A stretch of 64,000 bases of DNA. Origin: Mesodorylaimus sp. YZB2_4. Its lineage: Eukaryota > Nematoda > Enoplea > Dorylaimida > Dorylaimidae. Positions 44,795-57,600 of this stretch are shown here, piece after piece. The stretch is from positions 62,001 through 126,000 of the forward strand of contig JASANH010000900.1 of NCBI GenBank assembly GCA_030248295.1. The letters run 5' to 3'. Position 1 is the first letter of the stretch, and every line of letters begins with the position of its first letter. The translations under genes and the position numbers were made by a program. The notes beneath the pieces are model-generated. The model made no database searches and was not told where the DNA came from. It saw nothing but the letters and a program-made list of their open reading frames with translations.

Positions 44795-47700
44795 ATGAGC
44801 AGCTCTTCGATGACCTTCCTCATGGTCCTGTGTTTGGCCGCCATGGCCCTGACGTCGATGGGGCACAGTAAGTCATTTCTGGCCACGGGCCTCAACTCTC
44901 TGATACCGTGTTCGCGATACCGTGCATTCTCTTATTTCAGAGATCGAAAATGTCACCTTCATCAAAGACAACGCCCGAGTCAGCATGGCCGAAGTGAACA
45001 GCGACATCGTGATCGTTTTGGTCGGCACCTTCAACCAGAACGAATGGATCCATGCCAAGTTCCCAAACGGTTCCACCGTCGCCTCCATCCTCACCGCCGC
45101 CGACCATCGCTCGCCCTACGTCGAACTGACGTGGAAACTGCTGTCGGACAGCCCCTTCGGCGAGTACACTTTCGAGCACGATGGCAAAGACCTCGGACCC
45201 AAATGGCTCTTCCACCACCGCTTTCGTAAGTGCACTTTTTCCCTTTCCACTCCAGGAAATAAATTGAAGGGCCTGTTGATTTCGTGGGACCATGTCATTT
45301 AGCGACGGCGGCCGAGACCACCAACTGGCAGCCGTGCGACGACCCGACGAAGGTGAACCTGATGACCGCTCAAGGGTTGCAATGGTGCACCAAGACCAGC
45401 GAGTGCAGCAGACAGTACCCCGGAGTCCACGATCACGTGTGTCGAGGAAACCACAGAACGATGTGCGATTTCTACGCTCAAGACGCGGCAAAGGAGCCAA
45501 GTTCGGAACGAAACAAGGACTGCGACGAGAGCAGTAAGCAAATGTTTTTATTAGGAATGCAGATTTGTACCAAAATACCTTTTAGAGCCGCCTCCGCGCA
45601 TCGAATACATCAAGTTCGAAAAGACGCTAGTTCTCAACCTCTTCGATATAATCTCGATCGACGAGGGAAAGCCCTTGTTCGCTGCCCGCTGCATCGACGC
45701 CATGGTGGAAGCCAGGGGGAACTGCACCATGTCCCACTTGAATGGCACTGGATGGAGGTGGTTCCATTTCGACAAGTGCGACCGAATGACCCCCTTCAAC
45801 ATGACCAGCGTCTTCGAAATTCCCGCCATCTACGTCTTCCGCTGCTCGTGGAATGACAAAGACACGAGGGACGAATGGACTGCCTTCATCCTGAACCTGA
45901 AATCGAGTAAGCACATTGCTGCATTGATTCATATTTCAGAGGTGGCTCCAATGGTCCCATTTTTCAGAGGGAAAAATCGTGAGGGTGGAGAAAGACAAGG
46001 ATGGCTACGACACCAAAGTCGTCATCACGGTGGAAGTGCCTCCTTCGGAGAATGTTGTTGTCATCGAAGGACTATTGGACCCGACTGGCGAAAGCGTGGT
46101 AAGTTGCCTGGGTGTCAATACTGTACAGGGACATACTGTAGGATTAAAATTTTTCTGACAGGACTCTTACGACCCGAAAAAGTCTGGCATGTACACCTTC
46201 AGACGCACCGTCTTCTTCACGAAATGCGGCAAAACCAGTTTTGAAGTTTTCGAGGAGAAATTCTAGGTGAATGCCCGACCTGAGCCGAGTAAGCAGCCAT
46301 TTCTTGATATAAAGCAGTCGATACAGACGCGTATTTTCAGTCAAAGAGACGTCAAAACCTCCAATCTTGATCAACGTCACCTCCGGAGAAGAACATGTGA
46401 TCAATGGCCCAACGATCCCTCAAGAAAAGGACAGTAAGTACCTCGCCCCGCCCAGCCCTAGGATAAAGCAGTCGGGAGTTCTTTCAGCCTTGAACCCGTG
46501 GCTGATTGCCGGTATCGTCGCTGTTGTCATCGTCGCCTTCATCATCACCGTCGTCGTCGCTGTCATCCTGGTCCGCCGCAAAAGTAATGTTCGTTTCGAT
46601 CAGTGACTTCCTTTCTGAAAAAGACGTTTTTAGAGGAAGGCGCCAAGAACGTCGTCGACCCTGAGAAAGGCCTCGCGAACACCAAAAGTGACGGGATGGA
46701 CGACAGGATGATCGTCCTCCCTCGGAAAGAGGTGGAAGAAGTCATGGAGAAGCTGAACAAGGATGTGAACCAGGAAGCCCTGGACGTCCTGAACGTCGAG
46801 AAGCACGGGAAAGATGTGATCACCTGCGACCAGGAAATGGAAAAGCGCAAAAAAGAGGCCGACGAAATCAATGACGACGAGAAGAAAGCTTATAATGTCG
46901 TCGAGAAGTTCAACAAGGATGTGAAAAAGATCGAGGGCGAGCGTCGCAAAAACAATCAGATCGTCGTCATGACTGGAGTCCGTCACAGCTCCGAGTTGTA
47001 CGACCCGACGCGAGTCGTGCTGAAAGACAAGGACATCCACGAAAGCATGCGCAAGTGCCTGCACATGAACGCGATGAAGGACTTCCACAACACCGAGGTA
47101 CTCATCTCGCAATCCGCGCTGTATAAACACCTCTTCTACCATCTGCTGGCCTACTTGGAAAACTTGGTAAGCGATTCACATTCAGCCCATTCCATAGAGT
47201 CTGATCCATTGCTTGATCTATGCAGATCGGCGTGACCACCGTCATCGGGATGCTGAGGGAGGATGGAAAGCAACTGATCGACCCGTACTGGAGTCAGACC
47301 GAGAAAGGGTTCTTGCACTTCCAGGAGGAGCAAGGCAAAGGCAAGGACAGGATAATCACTGTCAGGACCTTGTGGCAAGTGAACAAGGTCTACGGCAATC
47401 TGTACCTGCTGCAGCTCGAGATGGCGGGCAGGCCGCATCACAAGGTACAGTATTTCTGATATTTGCAAGCTCAGGGGACGATGCAGGGGTCTTCCGTGTT
47501 TAGATGTTCCTGCAGCACATCGAAGACTGGAAGGACAACCAGGGGCCTGTCAACATTTCCAATGTGTGCGTGGCCGTCATGCAGAACAGGGAGCTGCAGA
47601 TGGTGCAGATGGTCAAACGTGGTCTGCCCAACATCGCCGTCCACTGCTCGGCCGGAATCCAGCGTTCGCCCACCTTCGTCGTCCTGCGCCTGAACCTGCA

Positions 47701-48298
47701 GGCCTTCATCTACTGCGGAAAGGTCAACGATCGTGGCTTCTGCCACCTGGTCCGCCTCAAGCATCCACGTCTTCACCAACGCCTTCTTCGAGCTCGTTCG
47801 GCACAAAATGTACCAGCAATTCTTGACTTGCGACAGGGGAACAGTCCGCCTGAGGAAATGGGCGCAACGTAGGTCGCTGTGGTCCCCCCTCCCCCCCACT
47901 GACGTTTGACTGCATTTCTTTTTCGTGCAGTTGGTCTCACGACCGAGGAGCTGATCGATGAGCGGTTGAAAAAGGAGGAAGAGAATGAAATTGAAGATCT
48001 CAAACGTAAGGTTGACGATCCGTACGAAAAAATGAGGCCGAATGAAGACAGCATGGTGACCGTGCCAATGAAGAAGAAAACGTCCAAGATGGCTCTGTCG
48101 AAGTCAATGAAAACGCAGAAGAGTGGGTCGAAGACCGCTGGAACAAAGCTCTCGATGTCGGAATCGATGAAAACGCAGAAGAGTGGGCCGAAGACCGCTG
48201 GACCGAAAAAGTTGATGCTGCTGAAGAAGTTTGTCACGAAGGCTACCATGGCAAAGGGAACGACGACCAAACCCAAGGCTCAACCGAAACGTGGCTGA
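44795..48298 (+). CDS. Receptor-type protein tyrosine phosphatase-like gene, 12 exons, with an in-frame stop and a frame break
   Basis: Exons: 44795-44867, 44941-45225, 45303-45533, 45586-45906, 45968-46098, 46162-46288, 46341-46433, 46488-46583, 46634-47166, 47226-47444, 47504-47868, 47931-48298. They begin with a signal peptide (MTFLMVLCLAAMALTSMG). An extracellular part of about 400 residues follows, with paired cysteines and several N-x-T/S sites. One membrane helix lies in exon 8 (AGIVAVVIVAFIITVVVAVIL). A charged juxtamembrane segment and a tyrosine phosphatase domain (exons 9-11) come next, then a basic tail. The P-loop HCSAGIQRS is at 47642-47668, with the catalytic cysteine near residue 751. 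WPD is replaced by WKD and KNRY is not preserved. A TAG at 46264-46266 interrupts exon 6. Near 47757 one base too many is present: only then do HVFTNAFFELVR and the exon 12 join stay in frame. It may be a young pseudogene, or the sequence may contain errors. Confidence 0.75.
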
Positions 48299-48364
48299 AG
48301 AGGATGGCGATGAGAGGAATGGAAAAGGGGAGAGATGAAGAGGGGTGATCGATGGATCGATTTT

Positions 48365-48501: not shown

Positions 48502-48939
48502 AATCAAAGACATTTGTAGCACAATGAGCGTGCATTTTGGAAATTCGGAGAAGACGCCATTCGATCGCCGTCATTTTTGCTCCAACATCAATACCCCTCC
48601 GCCCAAATCACTGCTGCGCTCTTGTCGTGTAGTCACATTTCATGGATCTTCAAAAATCCTATGGTGCGGCAGAGTTGAAATCCATGTTTGCAAAGTTGCC
48701 TCTGCCTTCAGTACTCGGTTTTACTTGGCACTATGCTTCGACTTGGTTCCTTGAATGGCTTCAGTCAAGACTTTGAATTACGATGAAAACGCATGATCGT
48801 AGCGTTTCACTTTGACATTTGAATGGCTTGGGTTGCCTGAGTAGGTTGAATGACTCAACGACTGGAGGCGGAGCCTTGGTCGAACGCGTGTCCTTTTTTT
48901 AGGGCGGCATTACCTGCTGTGCTCGTGTTATGGTAAAGT

Positions 48940-49295
48940 TCGGAATCACAAACAGAAACGGGATGTGGATGTGTTTACGTTTGTCAACGGATTGCGCGCG
49001 CTCTTGGCTCGTGCTGACGCGGACACGGATCCGTTTGAGGCGAAGGAGATGATCGCGGAGCAGTTTCTCATGGCGCTTTTGCCTAAATGGCGTAACGAAA
49101 TTCTGCGTTTCTTCGGTTCGCAGCCAGCGCCATATCCTTACGCCATTTAGGCAAAAGCGCCATGCGAAACTGCTCCGCGATCATCTCCTCCGCCTCAAAC
49201 GGATCCATGTCCGCGTCAGCACGAGTTAAGAGCGCGCGCAATCCGTTGACAAACGTAAACACATCCACATCTGGTAGCTGTTTGTGATTCCGAAA
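48940..49295. repeat. Fold-back copy of part of a retrotransposon gag
   Basis: 48940-49095 and 49138-49295 are inverted copies of the same gag segment, separated by a 42-base spacer. Both strands therefore translate to nearly the same protein (FVNGLRALL on both). The minus-strand arm is continuous with the main gag at higher coordinates. Confidence 0.9.
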
Positions 49296-50062
49296 TTTCC
49301 GCACCAAAATCTGGGTGTTTTCTGGGGGTGCGAAGTACCGAAGCAAGGTGGCTACCAGCTGCGGGTAGTCTGCCCGAATTTCCTCAGCCAAACCCCAGAA
49401 CAGGTTAACCGCATGACCATCCATGAGGACAGCCAGAGCCAATGCACGATGCGCATCGGTGCAACCCGATGTCCGCATTTCAAATTTCTTAAACCAATCC
49501 CGAAAATTATAAGGCATCTGTTCAGTAAAAAGGGGCACTAGCTGCTGGATGCCCTGAATGGCCCTTCGATCTTTATTCGTCATGACACCCCCGCGCGGTT
49601 CCCGTCCGCGTTGCTGGTTGCCGGCATTGGCTCGGCCACGAGCCCTTCCTCGACCCTGGCCCTGAACCCCGCGGTCTGGACCCTCGTCCCCGCTGCTGCC
49701 CTTATCTCCGTCATCATCTGGCGGAGGGCGACCACCGCGACTCATCTCCCGATCCATCAATCCTGCCTAAACCCGACCTACGTTCGATGCGACTCAGCAA
49801 ATGGCGAGTACCAGTATCATGCGCGTAGAAACGCTGGTTAGAACTCCTCGGGGTAGGACCCCATGTGGAGCTCCTTCGGGACTGCCGTGTAGGAGGCCTC
49901 GGGGACCCCGAATCCTCGGACGGTCCTCTCCTAGGCAAGGATGCTCGATCTGGAACTCCCCCACCCAAGCCCTTACCTGATCGACCAAGACCTCTCTGAC
50001 CGAGAGTACCAGTGGGACTGTGCCAAACGGGCCCACGCATTGTTTAGCGCGCGAGGTCAGTA

Positions 50063-50994
50063 CTGTAAACCGGAAAATTATTCGCGGCGGAAAAAGTTCG
50101 CGGTTTTCGCGGTTTTTAATTTTCCGCGAAAATTTTCCTCCGCGAAGTTGTACACACAAAATTTGAATTTGGCGCGTAATGCATTAAGCAGCTGAGCGTA
50201 ATAATATGAGCATCAAAACCATGGCTATACTATATGTGATAAATCACTGGCTCGCTCGCACCAAAGCGGGCGCCCCCTAACGGTATGAATCAGTCAGCGT
50301 TGCCGGCATTCTCCATGAAAGCCCGGAAAGGAATGATATCAAATGAACAGTGCCAAGAGGCATGAAATCAGTCAAATGTGGACAATTTGAACTGTCATCA
50401 CGTTTGGGCGAAAACATCGTTATTTTGAATTTGCCGCCAATCAGGTTCTTATCGATCTCGTCTGCTAGGATGCGGCAAGCTGACTATGTTGCGCAGCTGT
50501 GCACAGTATGCCTTCGAACCTGATTGGCGGCAAATTCAAAATAACGATGTTTTCGCCCAAACGTGATGACAGTTCAAATTGTCCACATTTGACTGATTTA
50601 ATGCCTCTTGGCACTGTTCATTTGCTATCATTCCTTTCCAGGCTTTCATGGAGAATGCCGGCCACGCTGACTGATTCATACCGTTAGGGGGCGCCCGCTT
50701 CGGTGCGAGCCAGTGATTTATCACATATAGTATAGCCATGATCAAAACTGTCGGTTGGGTGAAAACTGGTATTATGGACGCGGTTAAAAATGCTTTATGC
50801 ATGGATTAGAAAACGTTTCTTGATGTAAAGTGAAAAGTAAAGATGTCTGTGACGGAACGATGTACGGAACAAAGACTGTTGTAAAACGGTTCAGCAGGTG
50901 TTTAGGGCTTGTCCGCGAAAATTTTCCTCCGCGAGAAAGCCATATTAGAGGGACCCGCGAAATTTTTCCGCCGCGAACATATTCCGTCTTACAG
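50063..50994. mobile_element. MITE-like element with TA duplication inside the left TIR of the outer element
   Basis: TA at 50061-50062 and 50995-50996 flank it. Ends are CTGTAAACCGGAAAATTATT and, reverse complemented, CTGTAAGACGGAATATGTT, both followed by TTCGCGGCGGAAAAA. A second shared block, GAGGAAAATTTTCGCGG, lies further in. It has no transposase frame. TA target duplication is as in Tc1/mariner-like elements, but other superfamilies cannot be excluded. Confidence 0.85.
50220..50740. mobile_element. Fold-back element, near-perfect 229-base arms (innermost)
   Basis: It is flanked by ATCAAAAC at 50212-50219 and 50741-50748, an 8-base duplication. Arms 50220-50448 and 50516-50740 differ at only a handful of positions and flank a 67-base loop. 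Ends read CATGGCTATACTATATGTG. There is no transposase. Confidence 0.88.
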
Positions 50995-51193
50995 TAATTA
51001 GAAAAATCGCTGTCAAACGGGCCCGTAGTCCTTATGTAAACATATCACACTGTACACCTTTGCATAGGATTGCCTTTAATAGACGCTCTTTGCAGATCCA
51101 CTCCATAAATGCCGTAAATCGTTGCGTGCAAAATTTTTTCACTAAACAGTTTTACATTTGAACTTTTGCGACTGTTTTTGAAATCGGCTGTGC

Positions 51194-51544
51194 ATGCAAA
51201 TGGCGCATTTTGGCGTCCCAGAAAAAGTTCTCAGTAAATATTTGACGACGTCACTGATTCGATGGAAATTGCAAAACGATCCCAATCGATGCTTCCTGTT
51301 CCGTCAGAGAAAGCCCCCTGCCGAAGTCGGCGGAATTTGGAAATCGTATTGGATTTGTCAAAAATGCGATCAAATTCGAAAACGCGGAATTCAAGGAATA
51401 GCTTGTAATTTGCATCTGCGGCACGAAGGAGCCAACGAGACTATACTTACCAATCCAGAAAACGGCCATCATCCAGATTGCATACCAGATACGGTCGGAG
51501 AAGCGGAAGCGCGTCAACTCAAACGGCCATTTTTGGCAGAATAA
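51194..51544 (+). CDS. FLYWCH-like zinc-finger frame inside the outer DNA element
   Basis: The frame has 116 residues, uninterrupted. The middle reads W-K-S-Y-W-I-C-Q-K-C, then R-K-R-G-I-Q-G-I-A-C-N-L-H-L-R-H, later H-H-P-D-C. The aromatic-C-x2-C ... H-x2-H layout resembles FLYWCH or WRKY-GCM type fingers often found in Mutator-like (MULE) elements. It may be a leftover of a transposase or a captured host exon. The start is the first ATG of the frame. Confidence 0.45.
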   Translation: MQMAHFGVPEKVLSKYLTTSLIRWKLQNDPNRCFLFRQRKPPAEVGGIWKSYWICQKCDQIRKRGIQGIACNLHLRHEGANETILTNPENGHHPDCIPDTVGEAEARQLKRPFLAE

Positions 51545-52657
51545 TTTCGATGCTGCGGCCCTTCATCATTTGAATAGCCCAGGGTACGTGTTCCTGGTAG
51601 GTACGATTCGTCACTACTTACGTGTTCAGCGCCATCGAATTGGTGACGAAATTGCCGTTCATTGAGAATGTTCAGTTGTTTTCGATAGAAGTTCTCTATG
51701 CTTTTGACAGTATCCGTACAATACGTGGTATTCTGATGAAGTTATTTTTTTAATGGTTTCTGCGACTGTGTTGAAAAAAGTTCACTTTGCGAGCCAGTAT
51801 TACAATAGAACAACGCTGATGGATATACAGTGCTAAGGAATATATAACGCTAAGGAATAGACAGTGAAAAGGTATGGACACGGGACCATTTGACAGCGAT
51901 TTTTCTAATTACTGACCTCGCGCGCCGAACAATGCGCGGGCCCGTTTGACACGGAATCGTACCAGTTGGGTGTCCCGCCTGCTGAGACATACCCTCGCCG
52001 TCATCGATACCCAGGCCCCCGAACGGGTCTGCCGTGTTGCCAGTTGGATCTCCATCTGGTTCCATATCCGGTGGTAGCTGAGTGTTCACCTTCGAACTCT
52101 CCTTGCCATTCCGCTTTCAAGTACGTGTTCACGAGTTCCGTAGGTAACTGTACATGGGCGGCTGCCTGTCCCGCCCTGACAAAGTTAGGACCAAAAAATT
52201 TGTTGGTATTTGGCAAAGGATGGTAAAATGGCATTCGATAAAGCCGATTTTCGAGGTGACAGAGGATGCGCCCGCACCAAGGCGACTGCGACGATTCGAC
52301 GCGTCAACTCCCTCTGTAAAAAGTCTACATCCGCTTTCCGATTGTCAGGCACTACAATGCCCACTGCTTCGCATGTGTCGAGCAGGGTGCCTACGTTCTG
52401 ACACTTCCCAATGGTGGCGGCAGCTTTGTTGATCAAGGTTTTCGATCCTCCACTGCCAGAAGCCATGATTTTATGAGTTCACAAAAATTCCTTTTTGAAT
52501 TCCCAAATCCGAGATTCCCCAAACTGAACTCGGAGCAAAGGAAATCACAGACGAGCTCAGAAGCTAACTAGCGATCCTAGAACGCGAGAATAACTATGCC
52601 CAAAATTCCAAGCTCAAAAAAACACAAAACAACACACAAAATTCCAGTGACCGTACA

Positions 52658-52677
52658 GGATCCCACCCGTGTCACCA
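52658..52677 (-). other. Candidate tRNA primer-binding site of the LTR retrotransposon
   Basis: On the minus strand TGGTGACACGGGTGGGATCC lies six bases inside the LTR end (CCATAACA). Its complement ends in CACCA and reads like the last bases of a tRNA T-arm and acceptor. This is the expected position and form of a primer-binding site. Confidence 0.6.
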
Positions 52678-52683
52678 AAAAAA

Positions 52684-53150
52684 TGTTATGGTTGTTGTTT
52701 GTGAGTGTGCGACAGATCTCCATCGCGCTCGTACCGGCGGGTTCGGGCTGATCTTACAAGCGAGCGGTCCAAGGTCTTCAATAGCCCAGGCCTGGTAGAA
52801 AGGCTTGTTCCTCCAGAGTATCGATCACTGAGACCCCGACTCCTCAACAAACCCCTCAGGCGTGTCTGCCGCGCCTCCCAAGGGTGCGTGCAACTGCTCT
52901 GTGCAATGATACACTAGCCTGGCTGCTGGTCGAATGCACCCGGTCCTAAGGTGCCTACGCGGACGAGCAGTTCCGCAGTCGGTGGCGCAGTAAAGACTTC
53001 CGTCAACACCAGAGGATCCTTTACGAAGCACAACGAAGCACGATGATGTCTCAGCCGTCCTAGATCTTACCCACAGACAAATACGCAGACAAACCAAGTG
53101 CCTGCCCTGGAGTCAACTCCTGGACTCTTCCAGTATGAACCAAGGGGAAC
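52684..53150 (-). repeat. Probable 5' LTR of the retrotransposon (outer limit uncertain)
   Basis: The inner edge is set by TGTTATGG next to the primer-binding site. The region shows no gene. The outer edge could not be fixed because the second LTR is not in the window, so the end given is a guess. Confidence 0.35.
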
Positions 53151-53179
53151 GACGACCGCAGAGTGTGACCAGCACGCCT

Positions 53180-53350
53180 GGCGGTCGGGAGTAATCGATA
53201 CGCTCCCCTGGCTGGGACGTCAACCTCTTCGGTTGATGTTTTTAGAGCAGGTATAGTCGCGAGACTTGCCTACCTCCAGTCGGAGTTTTTTGCTTAGAGA
53301 CTTCGGTCTCGACTATCTCCCGCCGCCTGGGTGCGCTGGTTACAAGAGGC
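53180..53350 (+). repeat. Dispersed repeat sharing a core with 22930-23130 and 29060-29200
   Basis: The core CTTCGGTTGATGTTT and CAGTCGGAGTT match 22930-23130. The end block GGGTGCGCTGGTTACAAGAG matches the reverse complement of 29140-29170. Confidence 0.55.
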
Positions 53351-53689
53351 CCTTTGAGAGTATGCTAATCGAAGTCCCTCGCTGGCGCCTGGCCTGCCCC
53401 ACAGTTCTGTCAATGGGTTGGACAACACCAGGGGGCCTCCCCCCTGACCACAAGCCGACCACTTCTAGCTAGCACCCCTCAAAACATTCTTGGCCACTTC
53501 AGCCATACCCCCTTGGCAACGCAGTTTTGTAGAACGCAGCTTATGCTTTATTAAGCTTGGAAAAGTGCCTTAATCATCGAGACAAATTCTTTTTGATTCA
53601 TGGAACAAATTTCATTCTGTTGGAGCCTTTGTGTTCATGTTCATGTCTCACCACATCAGCAAACGCTTATGCGCACTCGAGGGTGAAGG

Positions 53690-54020
53690 GACACATTTCA
53701 CACGAAAAGATTTACCCACGAGTCGAGCACTCGCCCGTAACTGCGCACCTGGAGTGAAAGGCAGACGCCTAACCCACAAGGCCACGAGGCTGGTGGGTGT
53801 GGCCCCGTGCCGCCCCATTTACCATAACCAGCTCTCACGGTAGCTTCCATGTTTGTGTCTCCACTAAAAGCACCTCCACGCGAGGGCATCCTGTGCCAGC
53901 ATCCCAGGGAGAAGGGAGGGTCCTTCCCGACTGGTGTTCGGGAACCTCTGTTTAGCGTCCGCCACTCGACAGTACCAGGTGAGTCGCACAGAGCCAGGTG
54001 TGCAAGGCCAGCGATGGAGT
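53690..54020 (-). repeat. SINE-like copies
   Basis: Minus-strand 53800-53690 has an A-box-like TGGCCTTGTGGGTTAGGCG and the phrase GGCGTCTGCC found in the 8645 copy. 53968-54020 repeats the distal part of the 34675 element. Confidence 0.5.
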
Positions 54021-54606
54021 TACTAAACTGGTGAAAAAAAGGGTTTTTTATCAAAAATGTGCAAGCTTGCAACGGCCGACCATCGGCCGCCTAGGCTGCG
54101 GTTATGGATAGTCCCTTGGCGATTCGAAGAGAATGATCGATACTCTCCCTTGGCTAATCGGTTAGACTTACCTGCTCCGCTTAAAGTTTCCCATTCTCCC
54201 CAACGCCTGCCAGACTTGGTCGCACACACCAACCCCCTGTCAACCAGCACACGCATCATCTCATCTATTGACACAGTCACTTCGTACACGCAGTACAAGT
54301 GTACCAATACAAAATCCACTCTTGATCCTCATCGAGTCATACCCTGCTCAACATAAATAACCACACTCCATCATCTAAGATTGCAATTTCTAAGCCTCGT
54401 GTTAAGATTATGAAAATGATTCCAACAAGTAAAAAAAGGAAAAATACAAAAAGGCAACAAGTAAAAACGAAATTACAAATTTCACAAAATCATCATGGAC
54501 TGCAGTAACAATTGACACGTCATTCGTGTGGTCATTTCAAATACATTTCATATTCAATACGACCAAAATCATGAAAACTCAATGAGCAATAGCCGATGGA
54601 CAAGCT

Positions 54607-57600
54607 TCACGAGCAAAGCCGTTTCCAAAGCAGAGTTAACGCGGAATAAAACGCCAAAAGGAGGAAGGAACTAGAATACAGTCTCATTGCACGGGCACCA
54701 CTCGATTGTGGTTTTCTGGTAGTTGCTGATGGCAGCTTCCTACTCGAGGGCACAACGGGCTGACGCGACGTCGTCGTGGCCACAACTGGCCTCCTCGTCG
54801 TCGCAGTACTGCCCGTGCTCGTCACCGCTGTCGTCTCTTCCGTCGTGCTCACTGACGTTGAAGGAGCAGTCGTCAGTTGCGTCGTGACCTCTGAGGTCGT
54901 GGGCGTGGTCACTGGCGTGGCAGTGGTTTGAGGAGTCACCACCACATCGTCGTCTTCTTTCCAACCACTATCGCCATCCAACTCGGAATCATAGTCACCC
55001 TCCTCGCTCTCCTCATTGTCATCGGGGTCTGGCGTCGAAGTAACTGGCTCGAAAGTGAGCGATTCTTCGGACGATGACCACGTGGCGGCAGTTGTTTTGA
55101 CACCCCTCGGTGTGGTATCCTCGTCACCCAGATCGATCCGTTCCGTCGAGTCATCTTCCGGTTGACCACTCAGGTGGTAGGTGGGCCTTCTCGTGGAACC
55201 CTTCCCGTCCTCTTCCCCAGACGGCCGTTTGCTGGTGCTCGTTCTCACACCAGGGACCACTCGTGCTGGTGGCGACGGCAGTTCATCCTCACCATCACCA
55301 CTACCACTTCCATCCATCAAATCTTCATCATCAGTATCTTTTGGCAATTTGGACCCCGGCCGTGGTTGGAACACTTCCGTGTCATCGAATGGATCCCCAC
55401 TTCCGTCCCGTACAGCGGGCCCAATCGAATCTAGTCTTCCCCTCCAGGGTTTCGACGCACCCAGATTCCTACTGTTCTCTTTATCCGATGTTCCAACAGC
55501 CGCCTTTTGCGCAGGGAACGCGGTATCGATGTTGACTGATGTCGAATACTTCCAATCGGGTTCCTGCCCATTGTACGCCTTCTTCAAAGCCGTAGTTGCT
55601 GTTCGCAATTTGGCCAACAAGTCTCGGACTGAGTTATTCGATCTTCCCGAATCCACCGACACTTCGGGATTGGCCAACTGCCCGAAAGGACCATCGTTGA
55701 CCAAAGGCGATTCATACCTAAAAGACATGACCATCAGAGGCGGTTCTCATCGACACCGCGCTAGTCTTACTTGTCCTTAGCCAATCCATTCCAACAATCC
55801 GTCTCTGTCTTCTCGCTATCCAAACTGGCCGCTGTCGAATGTGACATTTTGTCATCGTTGCATAAGGTGTGAGGTAAATGACGCCAGAATCCTTTGGCCG
55901 GCTGAACTTTTTCTCTCAGATCCCTCGATAATCGATCCAAACTCGTGCCAGCCGCTGTTGTTGGTCGAACACTGACCGGGTGATGTTGATTCGGCACTGG
56001 ACTACTTCCACTGCTCAGAAACTCGCTAAATTGCCTTTGCTGCTGTTGTTGTTTCTGTAGCCTTTGTCTCATTCTCCCTTGGCCACCCCTGCCATTCGCT
56101 TTATTCCCACCACCTCGATTCGATGATTGGCGCTGCTCCGATCTGTCCGATTGTCTCTTCGGCCTGGTTCTTCTCTGTCGACGTCCAGGGCCCATTTTCG
56201 GTGCACCACATTCAGAAAAAATCTGAAAAAGAAGGGCAGGATTTTCAGCAAAGGTGGTAAGAGGGGAGACACAGTTTCAGACTCCTGGTCAGGTCAATAA
56301 GCTGAACGCACATCCAACACACATCTACTGCATGTGAAGTTGGCCCAGCAGGTCACCCCATAGCGAGACCATATGAACGCATATCAAGCCCACCAAAGGC
56401 AGACAGAAAGACCAGAAACAGCATCTGCTGTTCTCAATATCGCCACAGTGTCCTCCAAGATCCCCACCCTAAAGGGATCCATACCTGATCAGAGATCTCC
56501 TTGCCACGATCTTGGAATATCATGATGGCTTCGGATATCTTGACGTCGATCGGATCGATCACTGTCTCGATATTGAACGGCCCCTCCAGACGACTAAGCA
56601 AGTGCAGCAGAGCGTCTACAAAACAACAGATTATTGCAGGGTGTCTGACCTGACTTGACCCATGAACCGGACAGCACATACAGACAAAATGCCAGGGAGA
56701 CCGGGCCTAGGTGGGCTGGGAAATGGTGATCTACATCATGAAAAATTTCCCGCCACTCACGACATTTGAATTTTTCATGGAAAATGTACATTTCTTAATC
56801 TCGTTTCCCTACAACCGCTCATCATCCCCGCTCATTGTCTGATTATGAGTCTATCATCTGCCTTATAGCCCTTTATACACTTTTCTACCCTCCTCTATGC
56901 TCATACGTGTAATCTATCATGAGTTCACCCGCGTCCAGCAAACTCTCTTTTCCTACTGCTAGACCAAGTGCAACCTTAGACAACATGGCCCCTCCCTCTG
57001 GTCATTTACACCCCCCCCCCCCACCAATCCCTTCGCCATCTCCAACTCGCAATCAAGAAATGTGCCCATATTTACGTTGCCCTATCTCAAGATTTATCGC
57101 TTCTTTCCGTTTCGAATATCGATTTGTTTGGCAGATAGTGTGTCCAGTGCTGGAAGGCAGGTGGCCATCGTCCATTCGCGAGTGACCAGTCTGTTGCGCC
57201 CGGGAACGTCTCGTCTATATTTACCCTCGGCATAGCCGCTTCTAAATTGGGACTAGGCCTCGGGTAAACCAGCCTCGTTATTAGTGCAATTTTTCGAGGC
57301 TACAAGGCGGATACGATCTCGTTTCCTTGCGTCCTGGTAATTCGGACCCGAGGTGGAAGCCGTGCTTTCTCTGGTCACCATTCAAACACGGCTATTGACC
57401 GATGCTTTTCCGCTTGAACGAACCAACGTTATTAATTCAAAAGCTTCGCTCCTCTTTCGCCTCCTGGTCACCCTTCATCGGGGGATTGCTATGGTCATTA
57501 CCCACCGTCCATATATAGCCGTCGGGTCACTCCGCTTCGACGCGCCATTCACTTGGCTACTAAATGGATTGTTGCCGGTCGACCCGGGACCAAAGTTGCA

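What the first reader, a model, noticed from the sequence alone, without database searches (positions are those of the whole stretch)
50006..51966. Three DNA elements nested inside one another and then inside a gag, all junctions readable
A 521-base fold-back (duplication ATCAAAAC) sits in a 932-base MITE (TA duplication). That MITE sits in the left TIR of a roughly 1 kb TIR element (duplication GTACCAGT), which sits in a retrotransposon gag. Removing each layer with one duplication copy restores the layer below: the 84-base TIR pairs fully again, and the gag frame reads through. This gives a relative order of four insertions from the sequence alone and exact boundaries for three elements.
Basis: seen in the sequence. 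Interest (0 to 1): 0.78.

Follow-up and report, generated by a model that had tools for sequence, protein, structure and literature searches.

The report
Jumping genes nested in jumping genes
Three small mobile DNA pieces really do sit one inside another within a broken retrotransposon gene, but the two innermost also occur together elsewhere in the genome, so the nesting does not tell in which order they arrived; it is an ordinary kind of structure, cleanly documented.

Summary
Copies elsewhere in the same genome lack each insert and show one copy of the duplicated target: gag (single GTACCAGT at C577), the TIR element (single TA in 5 of 5 examined copies with that end), the MITE (single ATCAAAAC in 9 of 9 other copies spanning the site).

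Two readings change. (1) The outer element is an internally deleted copy of a 2.2-kb Mutator-like (MULE) transposon; the C3 copy keeps a 540-aa frame with the MULE domain. (2) The "order of four insertions" does not follow. A second MITE at C77, with its own TA duplication and different flanks, carries the same fold-back at the same base. Both lack about 107 bp of the usual MITE and share five substitutions absent from the ten other copies aligned. MITE plus fold-back most likely moved as one unit, so the fold-back may have entered the MITE before the MITE entered the MULE. Mutation counts cannot settle the direction.

"TIR pairs fully" is overstated (70 of 84). The same retroelement remnant holds a further, unreported insertion: a 181-bp solo LTR of an abundant miniature LTR element.

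Nested insertions, and MITE-bearing elements amplified as units, are already published. New member of a known kind, modest interest.

The parts
49132..52466 (-). gag region of a truncated LTR-retrotransposon copy (the outermost host), interrupted by the nest; similarity to other copies runs on to about 53443
   Evidence: ten copies read across the site are contiguous; the C322 copy is a 693-aa frame with a sub-threshold PF03732 match, 22.5 bits against 24.1
50006..50013 (.). left target duplication GTACCAGT of the MULE
   Evidence: single copy at the empty site in C577
51959..51966 (.). right target duplication GTACCAGT of the MULE
50014..51958 (+). internally deleted MULE copy (1011 bp without the MITE and its two TAs counted once each way, i.e. 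1945 minus 934); lacks about 1222 bp at about 51525 relative to the 2.2-kb copy at C3
   Evidence: transposase of the C3 copy: 540-aa frame, PF10551 E 9.5e-12
50061..50062 (.). left TA duplication of the MITE, inside the MULE left terminal inverted repeat
50995..50996 (.). right TA duplication of the MITE
50063..50994 (+). 932-bp MITE+fold-back composite; second copy at G000:C77:445734-446658
50212..50219 (.). left duplication ATCAAAAC of the fold-back
50741..50748 (.). right duplication ATCAAAAC of the fold-back
50220..50740 (.). 521-bp fold-back element, of a family with 8-bp duplications
53164..53344 (+). 181-bp solo LTR of a miniature LTR element, duplication AGAG at 53160-53163 and 53345-53348 (not in the finding)

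Best explanation
A truncated LTR retrotransposon was hit by an internally deleted MULE (8-bp duplication). That MULE carries, in its left terminal repeat, a TA-inserting MITE that had acquired a fold-back element (8-bp duplication). The MITE with its fold-back passenger moved as a single unit by cut-and-paste at the MITE ends, because the same composite sits at a second locus with different flanks. Shown: all boundaries, empty sites for all three layers, the second composite, the MULE identity. Inferred: mobilisation in trans by unseen transposases, and that the fold-back entered the MITE before the composite entered this MULE, which I think more likely than the reverse (about 3 to 1) but have not shown.
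For: Second composite at C77, 97% over query positions 56-991 only, i.e. exactly the MITE plus its TA duplications. In both composites about 107 bp are missing that six near-full-length MITEs (508-511 bp) have, and five substitutions, two of them beside the breakpoint, are shared and absent from the other MITEs with a letter there (ten others aligned). The 31-base junction pattern of this lineage occurs at 2 places in 145 Mb with up to 3 mismatches, these two. C77 has TA on both sides and different flanks. Empty sites for all three layers. MULE relatives: 8-bp duplications in 4 of 4 other copies with both ends, read by eye. PF10551 in the C3 copy.
Against: The fold-back sequences do not themselves unite the two composites: no site is shared by window and C77 and absent from the 13 others, and C77's nearest fold-back is C93 (5 differences), not the window (7); one further shared non-majority site is also found in 5 others. 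This fits a star-like young family but does not exclude independent insertion. Two other MITEs, C222 and C26, have a larger loss over the same region with a different left breakpoint, so losses there recur. Only two composites exist, so the direction of the move is not fixed. No transposase for the MITE or the fold-back was recognised.
Confidence: 0.82

Rival explanations
1. Strictly stepwise nesting at this locus (MULE into gag, MITE into MULE, fold-back into MITE), after which the finished MITE+fold-back composite transposed from here to C77.
For: Mutation counts allow it: window-only substitutions are 8 of 919 in the composite and 9 of 963 in the MULE pieces, Fisher p = 1. The window is the only MULE copy seen with the MITE (5 of 5 others examined are empty).
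Against: Needs the composite to leave soon after assembly and the donor copy to survive here; nothing points to the window as donor.
Confidence: 0.2
2. Two sister MITEs (sharing the 107-bp loss) each received a fold-back independently at the same base and in the same orientation.
For: No derived fold-back substitutions unite the two.
Against: Fold-back target duplications show no shared sequence by eye, so the same base and same orientation twice is very unlikely; no fold-back-free member of the lineage was found by the junction pattern.
Confidence: 0.03
3. Assembly artefact or chance similarity.
For: None seen.
Against: Every junction is reproduced by independent empty and, for the inner pair, filled copies.
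Confidence: 0.01

Closest known systems
Rice coding-MULEs carrying the Tourist-like MITE Os0548 (PMC3903597, passages seen)
   Same: A MITE nested in another DNA transposon, and the loaded element amplified as a unit: the paper says 107 elements (40 with an intact, 67 with a partial Os0548) are likely copies from a single insertion event
   Different: There the MULE carries a MITE; here a MITE carries a fold-back, in an animal-like genome, with only two composite copies found
Nested 936-bp inverted-repeat element (7-bp duplications) inside a Tm1 Mutator/foldback element of a root-knot nematode (PMC3169594, passages seen)
   Same: Two nested DNA elements with readable duplications, in a nematode, Mutator/foldback type
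   Different: Two layers, 9-bp duplications for Tm1, and in the passages seen no host retrotransposon layer and no second composite
MULE transposase P0004, Romanomermis culicivorax (first hit with a name; the top hit, unnamed, is 43% over 99%)
   Same: 41% identity over 71% of the 540-aa frame, MULE domain
   Different: A distinct family; its terminal repeats were not examined

Membership tests
Mutator-like element (MULE) | 8-11 bp target duplication | tested here: met
   8 bp in the window and in 4 of 4 other copies having both ends, read by eye
Mutator-like element (MULE) | terminal inverted repeats | tested here: met
   81 bp at about 90-94% within other copies; 70 of 84 in the window
Mutator-like element (MULE) | MULE transposase in a longer relative | tested here: met
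   540-aa frame at C3, PF10551 45.7 bits against cut-off 27.6
MITE with TA target (Tc1/mariner-like) | TA duplication and inverted ends | tested here: met
   TA on both sides in 9 of 10 copies with both ends; C222 is the exception
MITE with TA target (Tc1/mariner-like) | ends shared with a transposase-bearing Tc1/mariner element | tested here: inconclusive
   13 end matches; 13 loci with such ends were scanned only for open frames, which were not run against family libraries; no transposase recognised
Fold-back element | long inverted arms, short loop | tested here: met
   198-nt arm core 97% complementary, 67 nt between
Fold-back element | superfamily assignment through a transposase | tested here: inconclusive
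   four further loci with these ends showed no frame that I recognised as a transposase
Terminal-repeat retrotransposon in miniature (the 53164-53344 insert) | direct LTRs TG...CA, 4-5 bp duplication, short body without a long frame | tested here: met
   C20 copy: two identical 181-bp repeats, 724 bp in all, duplication GTTC by eye, longest stop-to-stop frame in the fetched stretch 133 aa; one copy examined
Terminal-repeat retrotransposon in miniature (the 53164-53344 insert) | primer binding site and polypurine tract | tested here: inconclusive
   candidate stretches seen by eye in L099 only, no tRNA match tested

The most novel reading that the evidence does not exclude
A MITE that captured a fold-back became a new mobile composite: two elements with different target rules (TA and 8 bp) now propagate as one unit, so that nesting depth and insertion order are decoupled in this genome.
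Probability: 0.75. Interest if true: 0.3.

Novelty: new member of a known kind. Interest (0 to 1): 0.27.

Why it matters
It is a documented case in which relative dating by nesting fails: containment is exact, yet the inner pair recurs elsewhere, so the innermost insertion need not be the youngest. Methods that order transposon families by who interrupts whom should first check whether the nested pair occurs elsewhere with different flanks. It also gives exact ends for a MULE, a TA-MITE and a fold-back family in an unnamed animal-like genome.

Tried and rejected
Autonomous partners. Four further loci with fold-back ends and 13 loci with MITE-like ends gave no frame that I recognised as a transposase; these frames were not scanned against family libraries.

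Dating. Comparing window-only substitutions in the composite and in the MULE was meant to decide whether the composite could have left from the window; the rates are equal (8 of 919 and 9 of 963, p = 1), so it decides nothing. The C291 copy was dropped from the left MULE block because it is truncated there, the 49-bp left MULE piece was not counted, and two of the composite sites (50203, 50213) were assigned by eye.

Empty site for C77. Only the flank at lower contig coordinates was searched. It is a repeat (39 other copies listed, 40 of 361 candidates scored), but the matches stop roughly 75-105 bp before the composite, so no empty site was obtained.

An RNA function for the fold-back was considered and dropped: the only Rfam hit in 48900-54600 at E up to 1 is mir-3851 at 25.2 bits against a gathering score of 106. 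For the miniature LTR element no Rfam family reached its gathering score.

Literature: searches. Of PMC3169594, PMC3903597 and PMC5907723 I saw passages (the last concerns non-nested arrays); the rest only as listings. I make no claim that the composite here is absent from print beyond these searches.

Full report
What was claimed and what is there. The sequence shows this: a MULE copy at 50014-51958 flanked by GTACCAGT, a 932-bp MITE at 50063-50994 flanked by TA, and a 521-bp fold-back at 50220-50740 flanked by ATCAAAAC. The window lies in a 145-Mb assembly of 1067 contigs, so each layer could be tested against its own genome (counts of repeats from such searches are lower bounds, 40 of 185 candidates scored there).

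Empty sites. For gag, the left and right flanks were searched separately, and ten loci in which both match were read across the site; an eleventh, C289, was not read. In 10 of 10 the flanks are adjacent. C577 carries exactly one GTACCAGT, C7 a diverged version, and in the other eight the 8-mer is not recognisable. Several of the ten are close relatives of one another, C322 and C291 being 99.6% identical, so they are not ten independent lineages. For the MULE, all five other copies examined that have the left end show a single TA. For the MITE, all nine other copies spanning the site show a single ATCAAAAC; two of them share flanks, so eight independent insertions.

The outer element. One search lists seven copies including the window. 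In C3, C125 and C291 extra sequence lies where the window has an abrupt junction at about 51525. The C3 copy is about 2234 bp, the window copy 1011 bp without the MITE and two TA bases pairs' worth of duplication, a loss of about 1222 bp; C125, C999, C158 and C508 carry different internal losses. The C3 copy has a 540-aa open frame with a Pfam MULE domain, E 9.5e-12. The four other copies with both ends have 8-bp duplications (by eye). Of 57 related proteins the best is unnamed (43% over 99%) and the first with a name is from Romanomermis culicivorax (41% over 71%). The element is therefore an internally deleted MULE. The claim that the TIR pairs fully is too strong: 70 of 84 positions match, and only two of the outermost six.

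The order of events. One further MITE copy, at C77, matches the window over exactly the MITE and includes the fold-back at the same base. It has its own TA duplication and different flanks. Both copies lack about 107 bp present in the six near-full-length MITEs and share five substitutions absent from the other MITEs with a letter at those sites. C222 and C26 have a larger loss over the same region with another left breakpoint. A 31-base junction pattern of the composite lineage occurs only at these two places. The simplest account is that MITE plus fold-back moved as one unit. If so, the fold-back may have entered the MITE before the MITE entered the MULE, and nesting does not give the order. 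The alternative, assembly here followed by export to C77, is not excluded: window-only substitutions are 8 of 919 in the composite and 9 of 963 in the MULE, p = 1. Against the simple account, no derived fold-back substitution unites the two copies, as expected for a young star-like family but also compatible with independent insertion; that would require the same base and orientation twice in a family whose target duplications show no common sequence by eye. The same caution applies one layer out: whether the MITE entered the MULE before or after the MULE reached gag cannot be told from one loaded MULE copy.

The families. The fold-back ends occur 195 times with up to three mismatches (91 forward, 104 reverse; reversed-pattern control 0); among the places listed, facing ends lie about 300 to 1100 bp apart. 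Of 14 other copies examined, 8 have exact 8-bp duplications, 3 match at 7 of 8 (C77 and two copies on C948), and 3 do not give a clean pair, one of them at a contig end. The MITE end occurs 13 times. No transposase was recognised for either.

Known or new. Nested DNA transposons with readable duplications are described in a nematode in PMC3169594 (passages). In rice, a MULE carrying a MITE was amplified as a unit, 107 copies from what the authors call a likely single insertion event (PMC3903597, passages). The present case is a new member of a known kind; its merit is that the inference from nesting to order can be seen to fail.

Setting. The gag remnant carries an inverted partial gag duplicate at 48935-49298 and, at 53164-53344, a 181-bp solo LTR with duplication AGAG that copies such as C322 lack. 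That LTR belongs to a 724-bp element with two identical LTRs at C20, and its core occurs 390 times with up to three mismatches (199 forward, 191 reverse, control 0). As RNA, window 53163-53344 folds far better than shuffles (z -7.2 and -7.1 on the two strands). The nest lies between a tyrosine-phosphatase-like gene (by eye) and a glypican-like gene (PF01153, 30.1 bits against 26.4).

Noticed in passing
window 53164-53344; L099 111-834: 181-bp solo LTR (duplication AGAG) of a 724-bp miniature LTR element; LTR core at 390 places with up to 3 mismatches; the single-stranded LTR folds with z about -7 on either strand, with UUCG-capped hairpins by eye; no Rfam family reached its gathering score.
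   Followed up: partly
window 48935-49298: Head-to-head duplicate of a piece of gag; the inverted part is 94% identical to the C322 copy while the direct part is 87%, so it may derive from another copy, although the two parts also cover different lengths of gag.
   Followed up: partly
window 46588-48348 (+) and 54607-55746 (-): Genes flanking the nest: a tyrosine-phosphatase-like gene with HCSAGIQR at the usual signature place (motif recalled, read by eye; its 46588-47232 frame had no Pfam hit) and a glypican-like gene (PF01153).
   Followed up: no
L092 5235-5648 (G000:C77): The repeat near the C77 composite has 39 other listed copies at 90-94% identity (40 of 361 candidates scored); not identified.
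   Followed up: no
L095 182-1284 (G000:C27): A 1103-bp relative of the fold-back with duplication GATCGCTC, containing one almost complete fold-back plus parts of others.
   Followed up: partly
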